Shown in pieces: positions 2,918 to 6,673 of a stretch of DNA of 46,341 bases. The stretch's first letter is position 1. The number at the start of each line of letters is the position of its first letter. The stretch is from Planctomycetota bacterium (GTDB taxonomy: Bacteria; Planctomycetota; Phycisphaerae; Tepidisphaerales; Tepidisphaeraceae): positions 1 through 46,341 of the forward strand of contig JBCDCH010000028.1 of NCBI GenBank assembly GCA_039182125.1, read 5' to 3'. Position numbers and translations under genes: made by a program. A model generated the notes under the pieces. That model was not told the origin of the DNA and searched no databases. It worked only from the letters and a program-made list of their open reading frames with translations.

Positions 2918-3442
2918 ATGAAGAAGAACGCGATTTTCTGCGCGGCGGCCATGCTCGCCTGCGCCGGGGTGTCTTACGGCCAAACGATCCTGACAGTTAA
3001 CGTGAGCGATCCCTCGGCGGTCGTGTTTGCCGCCACGGGCGAACCTGCCGCACTGGATGTGACTGATGCGGTCGTGTCGCTGACGTTGCTGGACTTTGAG
3101 ACTGGCGCCGGCTTCGATTCACTGGGCGGTCCCGGGCTCTCGGCTGACGGTGCTGACCCGTTCGCCTTCGGAATCAATGGTGGCACGATGTCTTATGTGC
3201 TTGGCAGTAGCGCACCGCCGACGGCTAACTACTCCACCACGTCTCCCGCGTTGACCGGGTCGGCTATCGCCGATTTGTCTGACACGGGTTTCCCTGCGGT
3301 CGGTACGGTTGCCGACATTCAGATCGCCGTGAGTGGTGAAGGTTTTGTCGTCGATCAGTACGCGGTTGTCGTTCCAGAGCCGACCAGCGCGTTGGCGCTG
3401 TTTGGTACCGCAGGCCTGCTCGGAATCCGACGTCGGCGTTAG
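2918..3442 (+). CDS. PEP-CTERM sorting-domain protein
   Basis: This 174-residue secreted protein has a classic signal peptide (MKKNAIFCAAAMLACAGVSYG, cleavage before Q22), a beta-rich middle without a recognised domain, and a PEP-CTERM tail: VVPEPTSA, a short hydrophobic helix, then GIRRRR at the very end. PEP-CTERM proteins are exported by Sec, processed by exosortase and usually end up associated with the envelope or exopolysaccharide. The middle is acidic and Gly/Ala/Thr rich with no cysteine. A GGAG ribosome site lies about 12 bases before the ATG. The gene stands alone and is closed by a perfect hairpin at 3479-3515. Confidence 0.85.
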   Translation: MKKNAIFCAAAMLACAGVSYGQTILTVNVSDPSAVVFAATGEPAALDVTDAVVSLTLLDFETGAGFDSLGGPGLSADGADPFAFGINGGTMSYVLGSSAPPTANYSTTSPALTGSAIADLSDTGFPAVGTVADIQIAVSGEGFVVDQYAVVVPEPTSALALFGTAGLLGIRRRR

Positions 3443-3571: not shown

Positions 3572-4612
3572 TTACTGGCCTGCACGGTACTCGTCGAGCG
3601 ACTTCTTCAGTTCGGCCATCAGGGCGGGTTCGTCGTTGACCTCGATGGCTTTCTGCTGAAACTCGATCGCTTTGTCGGTGTGGCCCATGCGGTAGTGAAC
3701 GCGGGCGACGTTGTCGAGAATGCCGGCGTCGCCGTGGTTGGTCAACTCGTTGGCCTTCTCGGCAGCGGTCAGGGCGACGTCGAAGTCCGGGTTCTTGAAC
3801 AGGCTGTCGGGCGCGACCATGGTCCACGCGACTTCGTTGAGCACCTGCGGATCGTCGGAGCTGTCGGCCAAACCGGCGGCGATGACGTTGGCCTCGGCTT
3901 CGCGATTGTTCTCGGCGAGCAGCGCCATCTTGAACACGCCGATCCGCGGTGCCATGTCGGGCGAGAGCACTTCGAGTTCGGCGAAGTGGGCGAGGGCGCC
4001 GTCGATGTCACCGGCCTGCAATGCCTGGCCGATCTCTTGGTTCAGAGCGTCCAACTGCTCGGCCTTGGCGGCTTCGGCGGCGGCGTCGAAGTTGCCGGCG
4101 ACGATCTTTTCCAGCGGGCCGTCCATCGCCATCGGGTGACCGATCCACGCGACGATGCCTTGCTGGTCGATGATGATCGAGCAGGGGATGCCGTTCTGAC
4201 CGGCGGCGCGGAGCCAGGTCGTGGCCATCGCGCCCTCCGGGTCGGCCGACTTGTCGTCGAGCGCAACGCGGTAATCCATCTCGTCGCCCATGCGTTGCAC
4301 GAACGGTGCCGGTGCGCTGTCGTCCTGTTCCCAGACGTTCTGGCCGATCATGACGACATCGTCGCCGTAGTGCTGCTGAAGTTTGGTCACATGCGGAATG
4401 GCCTGGATGCACGGCCCGCACCACGTCGCCCAGAACTCTAGGACGTACACGGTGCCTTCCTCGAACTCGGTGACGGGCTCGCCCTTGAGATACTCACCCT
4501 GCTGCAACGGCGGCGCGGGATCGCCGACTTTGAGGGTGACTGCTTGAGCGAATGCCGTGATCGCCAACGCGAACGTAAGAAGGACCGCGAGAAAGGTGAT
4601 GTAAGTTTTCAT
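3572..4612 (-). CDS. TlpA-like secreted thioredoxin with C-terminal TPR region
   Basis: This is a 346-residue exported protein. Residues 1-23 form a signal peptide ending AFA. Residues 25-165 form a TlpA/ResA-like thioredoxin fold with the redox pair in WCGPC (about 64-68) and the cis-proline loop GIPCSIIID. Residues 180-346 are helical TPR-like repeats ending in EYRAGQ. TlpA-type proteins reduce disulfides or assist cytochrome and cofactor maturation outside the cytoplasmic membrane; the TPR part presumably binds a partner. An additional Cys follows the cis-Pro, which is unusual because Thr is common there. The start is the ATG at 4612, right at the signal peptide. A truncated copy of the tail lies at 1178-1339. 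Confidence 0.88.
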   Translation of the reverse strand: MKTYITFLAVLLTFALAITAFAQAVTLKVGDPAPPLQQGEYLKGEPVTEFEEGTVYVLEFWATWCGPCIQAIPHVTKLQQHYGDDVVMIGQNVWEQDDSAPAPFVQRMGDEMDYRVALDDKSADPEGAMATTWLRAAGQNGIPCSIIIDQQGIVAWIGHPMAMDGPLEKIVAGNFDAAAEAAKAEQLDALNQEIGQALQAGDIDGALAHFAELEVLSPDMAPRIGVFKMALLAENNREAEANVIAAGLADSSDDPQVLNEVAWTMVAPDSLFKNPDFDVALTAAEKANELTNHGDAGILDNVARVHYRMGHTDKAIEFQQKAIEVNDEPALMAELKKSLDEYRAGQ

Positions 4613-4837
4613 TATGGCTCCGGTGTGGGTCGGTGTGACGCTACCAGATAGCGTGTCGGTGCACGACCGAAAATCTCCGGCATCGTCGCCTAACTGCCCG
4701 ACGTCGGTCAGCGCGGTGTCCTCGGCATCAACCCTGCAACGAGCTCGCGGAAGCTAACCGTGTCCGTTTTTCCAGTTAGCCCATGTTCGATTTTGTCCTA
4801 CCTGTTCGGGGGATTGACGACTGTAAGGCCGGTAAAG

Positions 4838-5239
4838 ATGACTCATGGTATGATGCAAGGACTCGAAGCACTCGAAAATCGCCGTCTTCTCACCGCCGCC
4901 GCCATTCTCGTTGAAGCCGCCGATGCGGTTGTCACCGAGGGTGAGGTGATCGAGATCGAAATCACACGCACGGGAGACTTGAACGAAGCCCTCACCCTTG
5001 AGGTGGACTTTGACGGCACGGCCACGCCCGGCCAAGATACGCAGATCCCCAGTGGAACTGTGTCATTCGCACCCGGCGAGGATTCGACGACTTACTCGCT
5101 CGCCTCATTGCCCGATGACGTCACCGAGGGTGATGGGGAAGGGGAGCAGCTTGTGGCTCGTGTCGGTGAACGCGTGGACGCCGAAACCCTTGTGTATAAA
5201 GGCGAAACCACCGTGAAGATCGAGGATTTGGTCGCTTAG
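4838..5239 (+). CDS. LEPR-XLL-motif protein with Calx-beta domain (probable 5' part of a disrupted gene)
   Basis: The frame encodes 133 residues from ATG 4838. Near the N-terminus is LEALENRRLLTAA, a form of the LEPR-XLL motif found at the N-terminus of large planctomycete surface or exported proteins. Then comes one Calx-beta domain (about 22-130: VTEGEVIEIEITRTG, VDFDGTAT, FAPGEDSTTYSL). Calx-beta modules are calcium-binding adhesion or spacer domains. The frame ends at a TAG (5237-5239), but the same frame continues without another stop through a Pro/Gly/Asp-rich linker into a T4-type lysozyme domain. I read the TAG as an in-frame nonsense codon splitting one longer gene. Alternative: a real short protein coupled to the next frame. 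Other in-frame ATGs at 4850 and 4853 are possible starts. Confidence 0.7.
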   Translation: MTHGMMQGLEALENRRLLTAAAILVEAADAVVTEGEVIEIEITRTGDLNEALTLEVDFDGTATPGQDTQIPSGTVSFAPGEDSTTYSLASLPDDVTEGDGEGEQLVARVGERVDAETLVYKGETTVKIEDLVA

Positions 5240-5257
5240 CCGGGTGATGATGCGGGT

Positions 5258-6012
5258 GTGACACCGATTCCCGCAGGGCCGGCTGATGGCGGTCCGATTG
5301 ATCCGGGCGGAGCAGGCATCGACAATGCCCAAGCGTTCAGAGAGCGCACGCGCCAACGCTTGATCCATGAGGAAGGTTTAGGGCATGAAGCCTACGGGGA
5401 CACCAAGGGCAATGCGACGATCGGCATTGGTCATCACTTCAATGACAGAAGCCACCAAACCTTGGAAGACGTGACGGGCAATCCTTACACCGATTACCTG
5501 CCCCCACTCAAGCGGACGACGACGGAAATCTCATTCTCGATGAAGACGGTGACCCCATTTACGACTGGAGTGTTGACCCGGAACGCACCCTTACACAAGA
5601 CCAGATCGAGGAGTTATTCTCGCGTGACTTGCAGCTTCACATCGATCGTGCGCTAGCAGCCGTGCCGAACTTGGCTAATCTGCTGGCGGGCGTGCAAGAG
5701 GCTGTCGTCGATTTTGTCTTTAACAACGGCAGTATGGCGAACTTCCCGAGCATGGCCGCCGCATTGCGTGACGGAAGACTACGCGATGCGGCTTGGCAGA
5801 TGAGCCATCGCAACGGTGATCGTGACTCGGAGAAATCAAGGTACTTCCAGTACTTTGAAGGTGAAAAGGATGAGAATGGCAACTGGACCCGCCGTCCGAA
5901 CGATCGTGCCCGCGATAATGTCGCAGCCTTGAACGAGGCGGCGACCGCCAACGGTGAACCCCCGAAGTGGGGCTACTGGAACGATGTCGATGACCAAGAC
6001 CCACAGGGTTAG
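5258..6012 (+). pseudogene. T4-lysozyme-type muramidase domain, interrupted by a frameshift
   Basis: From 5258 (GTG) the frame gives a GH24 lysozyme start: IHEEGLGHEAYGDTKG then ATIGIGHHF. This lines up with T4 lysozyme, and the catalytic Glu (EEG), Asp (GDT) and Thr (ATIGIGH) are all present. The frame then runs into nonsense after NPYTDYLPP and stops at 5656. The overlapping frame -1 carries the rest of the domain down to a TAG at 6010-6012: DDDGNLILDEDGD, LTQDQIEELFSRDL, VQEAVVDFVFNNG and SMAAALRDGRLRDAA. The two halves join if one C is added to the five-C run at 5501-5505. The enzyme would hydrolyse peptidoglycan. It is most simply the 3' part of the LEPR-XLL/Calx-beta gene upstream. Sequencing error at the C run is possible. 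Confidence 0.75.
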
Positions 6013-6079: not shown

Positions 6080-6673
6080 ATGATCGCTATCTGCGCGTTT
6101 TTGTTGTTCTCGGTGGCACCAGTCGATCACGACGGCAAAGACCAACGCGCCGCGTTGGTCGAAGACGTTTTGGACGATTTCATCATCGACGACGAGCCGA
6201 TTCACCCGATGGTCATCGAGCCTTTCATGCCCACTATGAAGGGTGGGGCACCGAAGGTGTTGAGCGTATCGCTCGATACGTCACTGCACCTCACATCATG
6301 GCTGGACGAGCCCGTGTCTGATTCAATGCGGCCGGCTTACTTGATTTACAGCCAGACGAGCGATTTGGAACGACTAACCATCTGGTACGACCACATTGGA
6401 GTGCTTTCAGACAACCGCGTCGTCTTGCGGGCAGCCATCAATCACGGTGGCACAATGACCATCGTCAAGACACTTATCCTGCGCGTTGTGACCGTCGAGG
6501 CCATCGTCGAAGGCGATGGTCCCGAGGTGATCGTTGCCTTGGAAAAGGTGCTGCCGCTCGACCATTTCGGTTCCAGTGTCGAGATTGCCGGCGACGTCGT
6601 CACGGTCACTCGGCCGAGCGAGGGGGCGGGTTCTGTCACATCGACATACGACCTTTCGCGCAGCGAGAAGTAA
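6080..6673 (+). CDS. Exported protein of unknown function
   Basis: This 197-residue protein begins with a short hydrophobic N-terminus (MIAICAFLLFSVAPV), probably a signal peptide. The rest is mixed alpha/beta with acidic patches and no cysteine. I recognise no family. It follows the broken lysozyme gene by 67 bp on the same strand, with a GAGG ribosome site about 10 bases before the ATG, so it may have been co-expressed with that gene, for example as a partner or immunity-type protein. That role is only a guess from position. Its stop lies 47 bp before the end of the convergent pdxH. Confidence 0.65.
   Translation: MIAICAFLLFSVAPVDHDGKDQRAALVEDVLDDFIIDDEPIHPMVIEPFMPTMKGGAPKVLSVSLDTSLHLTSWLDEPVSDSMRPAYLIYSQTSDLERLTIWYDHIGVLSDNRVVLRAAINHGGTMTIVKTLILRVVTVEAIVEGDGPEVIVALEKVLPLDHFGSSVEIAGDVVTVTRPSEGAGSVTSTYDLSRSEK

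What the first reader, a model, noticed from the sequence alone, without database searches (positions are those of the whole stretch)
4838..6012. A sorted Calx-beta/T4-lysozyme fusion gene broken by a nonsense codon and a C-run frameshift
Three pieces lie in one continuous stretch: a LEPR-XLL-type N-terminus plus Calx-beta domain, a P/G/D-rich linker, and a phage-T4-type muramidase with its Glu-Asp-Thr triad intact. The linker is in the same frame as the Calx-beta part and only an in-frame TAG (5237-5239) separates them. Further on, one C missing from the 5501-5505 run puts the second half of the lysozyme in the -1 frame. A surface-sorted peptidoglycan hydrolase would be an attractive antagonism or predation tool for a planctomycete. 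Either it is being lost, the sequence has two errors, or expression uses recoding.
Basis: partly seen in the sequence, partly recalled or inferred. Interest (0 to 1): 0.72.

Follow-up and report, generated by a model that had tools for sequence, protein, structure and literature searches.

The report
Broken member of surface lysozyme cassettes
A planctomycete gene that once joined a cell-surface anchoring module to a phage-type cell-wall-cutting enzyme has been broken by two mutations, and it is one of five cassettes in this genome that share the same front module but carry different back ends and different partner genes, an arrangement that resembles bacterial toxin/immunity systems.

Summary
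ORF 4838-5239 has an LExRRLL tag and a Calx-beta domain. The same frame continues past TAG 5237-5239 into a linker and the N-lobe of a T4-type lysozyme (Glu, Asp and Thr at T4 spacing). The rest of the lysozyme lies one frame back and ends at 6012. Both halves hit Pfam Phage_lysozyme at consecutive profile positions. The best explanation is recent gene decay: TAG is a normal stop here, no slippery heptamer exists at the frame change, the other window genes are each in one frame, and two sister loci also carry frame breaks.

The tag plus Calx-beta module is one of exactly five copies in this genome, absent from 346 other genomes of the class. It is under purifying selection, and DNA similarity stops at 5233, just before the TAG. 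C-terminal parts differ or diverge strongly, and each is followed by a small membrane or secreted gene that also varies. This is the anatomy of a lineage-specific polymorphic toxin/immunity family, like Neisseria MafB-N or Microscilla-N. Toxicity, immunity and export are inferred, not shown. Only the lysozyme payload has a recognisable activity, and it is broken.

The parts
4838..5239 (+). ORF1: LExRRLL surface tag (about 4871-4891) + single Calx-beta domain; ends at TAG 5237-5239 (133 aa)
   Evidence: PF03160 E=3.2e-8; 5 copies in this genome; dN/dS about 0.09 against the closest paralogue, dS near saturation
5237..5239 (+). TAG stop at the module/payload junction; no stop there in the 4 paralogues
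   Evidence: DNA similarity between copies ends at window 5233
5240..5446 (+). P/G/D-rich linker and N-lobe of T4-type lysozyme, in the frame of ORF1 (E11, D20, T26 equivalents)
   Evidence: PF00959 3-26; gapless match to T4 lysozyme 7-33
5446..5656 (+). interval in which the reading frame changes by one base back (last stop of the new frame at 5443; stop of the old frame at 5654-5656)
   Evidence: no slippery heptamer
5503..6012 (+). C-lobe of the T4-type lysozyme in the other frame, ending TAG 6010-6012
   Evidence: PF00959 29-105 E=3e-4; phrog_7 endolysin 4.2e-6
6080..6673 (+). downstream partner gene, 197 aa, hydrophobic N-terminus (short, signal-like), otherwise no family; candidate immunity protein, intact
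   Evidence: no confident Pfam/NCBIfam/PHROG/PADLOC hit; hydropathy; same position as the partner genes of the four sister cassettes

Best explanation
The locus is the decayed lysozyme-bearing member of a five-copy, lineage-specific family of two-gene cassettes. Gene 1 has a constant N-terminal module (LExRRLL surface tag + Calx-beta) followed by a variable C-terminal payload. Gene 2 encodes a variable membrane-anchored or secreted partner. The most likely function is surface-displayed antagonism: the constant module exports and holds the protein at the cell surface, the payload (here a muramidase) attacks a neighbour, and the partner protects the producer. In this copy a nonsense codon at the module/payload junction and a frame break inside the lysozyme end translation after Calx-beta, so the lysozyme is no longer made while the partner gene is intact. 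Shown: anatomy, paralogy, the break, selection on the module, composition. Inferred: export, toxicity, immunity. Separate confidences: decayed fusion gene 0.85; five-copy constant/variable cassette family 0.9; toxin/immunity function about 0.5.
For: Five copies in the genome, none in 346 other class genomes at E<=1e-12. DNA similarity between copies is confined to the N-module. The two closest modules (window and C17, 73% identical) carry C-parts and partners with no detectable similarity. The proportion of non-synonymous differences is about 0.10-0.13 in modules but 0.45-0.59 in C-parts among C8/C6/C117-87. In those three, C-part and partner have GC3 of about 0.43-0.56 against 0.80-0.91 in six long window genes; whole cassettes are 0.52-0.57 GC against 0.64. 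Partners are co-directional, within about 70 bp or overlapping, and in four of five loci have an N-terminal TM-like helix. C8 has tandem partner paralogues weakly related to the C6 partner. Decay: two lesions here, a probable -1 break in C17, a broken partner copy in C8, against 0 of 33 other window genes (Fisher p=0.012).
Against: Only the lysozyme payload has a known activity; the other C-parts and all partners match no family. No export, toxicity or immunity was tested. The partners could be membrane co-factors. PF07595 is below its cut-off in the window copy. In the window and C17 copies the module is as AT-rich as the payload, so composition supports joint arrival of payload and partner in only three of five. 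The AlphaFold model of the partner is poor (pLDDT 45), so a lysozyme-inhibitor fold could not be tested. Counting the C17 and C8 breaks rests on few genes.
Confidence: 0.55

Rival explanations
1. Simple pseudogene of a surface-anchored lysozyme acquired from a phage; the cassettes are ordinary diversified surface proteins and the downstream genes are membrane partners of some other kind, not immunity proteins.
For: T4-type lysozymes are rare in the class (1 of 248 genomes over the cut-off), consistent with acquisition; LExRRLL-tagged surface proteins are common in this genome; the other payloads are unidentified.
Against: Does not explain why C-part and partner change together while the module stays constant, nor the tandem partner paralogues in C8.
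Confidence: 0.3
2. Sequencing or assembly errors: the gene is intact in the organism.
For: The frame breaks in the window and in C17 both fall in stretches that contain short C runs; draft assembly of 131 contigs with one break inside a paralogue.
Against: About 33 other window genes are each in one frame, including long ones with full-length domain hits; needs a substitution and an indel in one gene, and errors clustered in the same gene family.
Confidence: 0.1
3. Programmed recoding: TAG readthrough plus -1 frameshifting make the full fusion protein.
For: Both frames stay open and look coding; the C17 break is also in the -1 direction.
Against: No X XXY YYZ heptamer in the overlap; TAG is a normal terminator here; two recoding events in series would be needed.
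Confidence: 0.02
4. Separate working ORFs: a stand-alone Calx-beta surface protein followed by a displaced, independent (orphan) lysozyme cassette.
For: The TAG lies exactly at the end of the shared module, as expected if a payload had been displaced downstream.
Against: The four sister copies are continuous fusions; the linker stays in the frame of the module; the lysozyme is itself split between frames and has no signal sequence of its own.
Confidence: 0.06

Closest known systems
Neisseria MafB-N and Microscilla-N lineage-specific polymorphic toxins (Zhang et al. 2012, PMC3482391, section 37)
   Same: Conserved N-terminal domain restricted to one lineage, hypervariable C-terminal domain, several copies per genome, presumed surface anchoring; polymorphic toxins in general have an immunity gene next door.
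   Different: Here the constant module is a planctomycete LExRRLL tag + Calx-beta instead of signal peptide + MafB-N; most payloads are unidentified; copies are scattered between housekeeping genes; no MafA-like anchor gene seen.
T4-type lysozyme / phage endolysin (Pfam PF00959, phrog_7)
   Same: Both lobes, and E11, D20, T26 at T4 spacing.
   Different: About 40-residue insertion between the lobes relative to Pfam, fused behind a surface module, and broken between the lobes.
Planctomycete cell-surface N-terminal motif (Pfam PF07595; Studholme et al. 2004, as cited in PMC8567305)
   Same: LExRRLL near the N-terminus, genome-wide on surface-type proteins.
   Different: Scores below the Pfam cut-off; attached here to small (about 240 aa) cassette proteins.

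Membership tests
T4-type phage lysozyme (PF00959) | Match over the profile | tested here: inconclusive
   Each half is below the 22.3-bit cut-off alone (16.5 and 21.5), but they cover consecutive profile positions 3-26 and 29-105
T4-type phage lysozyme (PF00959) | Glu-Asp-Thr catalytic triad at T4 spacing | tested here: met
   Gapless alignment to T4 lysozyme 7-33
T4-type phage lysozyme (PF00959) | One continuous reading frame | tested here: not met
   Frame change between the lobes
Calx-beta (PF03160) | Score over gathering cut-off | tested here: met
   34 bits against 27; C8, C6 and C17 also pass
LEPR-XLL / Planc_extracel (PF07595) | Score over curated cut-off | tested here: not met
   13.3 bits against 25.5; no NCBIfam hit; motif present by eye and genome-wide
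Polymorphic toxin system | Conserved N-terminus, polymorphic C-terminus across paralogues | tested here: met
Polymorphic toxin system | Adjacent small gene that changes together with the C-terminus (immunity gene position) | tested here: met
   position and covariation only, five loci
Polymorphic toxin system | Recognised toxin domain | tested here: inconclusive
   Lysozyme in one of five (broken); the others unidentified
Polymorphic toxin system | Toxicity and specific immunity | not testable with these tools
   needs expression assays

The most novel reading that the evidence does not exclude
Planctomycetes of this lineage use a surface-tag + Calx-beta module as a previously undescribed constant carrier for exchangeable antibacterial payloads with cognate membrane or periplasmic immunity proteins, one payload being a T4-type lysozyme.
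Probability: 0.4. Interest if true: 0.7.

Novelty: new variant of a known kind. Interest (0 to 1): 0.5.

Why it matters
A compact five-copy family with a constant surface module, variable payloads and matched small partner genes gives a testable entry point to antagonism between planctomycetes and their neighbours. The broken lysozyme copy, with its partner intact, is the one whose payload activity can be guessed from sequence.

Tried and rejected
Orthologues of the lysozyme: none in 60 relatives (the G020 hit lies in an unrelated frame), GTDB contigs (the Ignavibacteria hit lies in an ORF that looks like thymidylate synthase), IMG/VR or phage records. The one true PF00959 protein in 248 class genomes (L036) is a plain phage-type lysozyme. 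Synteny of the flanking thioredoxin-like and pyridoxamine-oxidase-like genes: their relatives lie on unrelated contigs, so an empty site could not be shown. AlphaFold of the partner and of the lysozyme second half: pLDDT 45 and 48, too poor for fold searches. Programmed -1 frameshift signal: none. PDB sequence search of the second half gave only chance hits. The G046 hit to the partner (E 5.6e-4, 24% identity) was not followed up. Papers on Calx-beta or LEPR-XLL in planctomycetes: nothing relevant held.

Full report
What is there. The window is the whole of contig 28 of a 4.13 Mb draft genome, planctomycete-like by its tagged surface proteins. At 4838-5239 an ORF encodes 133 residues with LENRRLL near its start and a Calx-beta domain (PF03160, E=3.2e-8). 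It ends in TAG at 5237-5239. The same frame then runs on through a P/G/D-rich linker into EEGLGHEAYGDTKGNATIGIGHH, which aligns without a gap to T4 lysozyme 7-33 and places Glu11, Asp20 and Thr26. The rest of the lysozyme is in the next frame back and ends at 6012. The two pieces match Phage_lysozyme positions 3-26 and 29-105, and the second piece matches endolysin phrog_7 at 4e-6. The LEPR-XLL label is loose: no curated model passes, but LExRRLL is a genome-wide N-terminal tag here (48 pattern matches against 24 for the reversed control; 25 of 30 inspected lie near the start of an ORF). PF07595 was used in a planctomycete proteome study as the cell-surface signal reported for Rhodopirellula baltica (PMC8567305).

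Why it is broken. TAG ends 4 of 34 window genes, and the lysozyme frame itself, so it is not generally a sense codon. No slippery heptamer lies in the interval where the frames overlap. The other genes of the window each occupy one frame, long ones with full-length domains, so this is not a generally error-ridden assembly. Sister cassettes show more damage: in C17 the coding signal moves to the -1 frame near the end, and the third gene at C8 matches the C6 partner in two pieces in two frames. Three of 11 cassette genes against 0 of 33 others gives p=0.012 (a small sample, and C17 is only probable). The long open frames that remain on both sides suggest the breakage is recent. Without reads, sequencing error cannot be excluded.

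The family. A search of the genome with the N-module finds exactly five copies: C28 (window), C17, C8, C6, and one split across the ends of contigs C117 and C87. None of 346 other genomes of the class has one at E<=1e-12. DNA similarity between copies covers essentially the module only; between the window and C17 it ends at window 5233, four bases before the TAG. The module is under purifying selection (dN/dS near 0.09 for window-C17, with dS close to saturation, so the ratio is approximate). The C-parts differ: lysozyme in the window, an unknown sequence in C17, and three divergent relatives in C8, C6 and C87 (26-37% identity). In all four sisters the C-part is fused in frame with the module.

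The partner. Directly behind each gene, on the same strand, comes a gene of 145-228 aa whose product has one N-terminal hydrophobic segment (four loci) or a short signal-like start (window). The partners of the window, C17 and C87 copies show no similarity to each other or to the rest; the C6 partner and the two tandem C8 partners are weakly related, as are their C-parts. In C8, C6 and C87 the C-part and partner share AT-rich third positions (GC3 0.43-0.56) while six long genes of the window are at 0.80-0.91. This is what is expected if payload and partner arrive together behind a resident module. In the window and C17 copies the module is as AT-rich as the rest, so there the composition does not separate them.

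How it most likely works. By analogy with lineage-specific N-terminal modules of polymorphic toxins such as MafB-N and Microscilla-N (PMC3482391 section 37), the tag and Calx-beta domain would take the protein out and hold it at the surface, the payload would act on a neighbour, and the partner would protect the producer. A lysozyme payload needs a protector outside the cytoplasm, which fits signal-bearing or membrane-anchored partners. Anatomy, selection and covariation are shown; export, toxicity and immunity are inference. In the window copy translation should stop after Calx-beta, leaving the partner as an orphan.

What remains open. No homologue of the modules, payloads or partners was found outside this genome in samples of about 200-350 class genomes, apart from a weak, unexamined hit to the window partner (24% identity, E 5.6e-4), so recombination between strains could not be watched. 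Structure predictions were too poor to use.

Noticed in passing
L025 (C8) 3574-4935: Two tandem partner-type genes; the second is split between two frames, a further decaying copy.
   Followed up: partly
L027 (C117) end 6359 / L028 (C87) end 4082: A contig break lies inside the fifth Calx-beta module, with an 8-base overlap of the two ends, so C117 and C87 are probably neighbours (cassette directly downstream of a gyrB-like gene).
   Followed up: yes
genome-wide, loci L057-L086: LExRRLL N-terminal tag on at least 25 ORFs, many very long; the window copy scores below the Pfam PF07595 cut-off, so the curated model may miss this lineage.
   Followed up: partly
window 2918-3442: PEP-CTERM protein of 174 aa upstream of the cassette, implying an exosortase system in the same genome.
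   Followed up: no
L024 4442-4795: Coding signal of 117 residues in the -1 frame at the end of the C17 copy, with no database match.
   Followed up: partly
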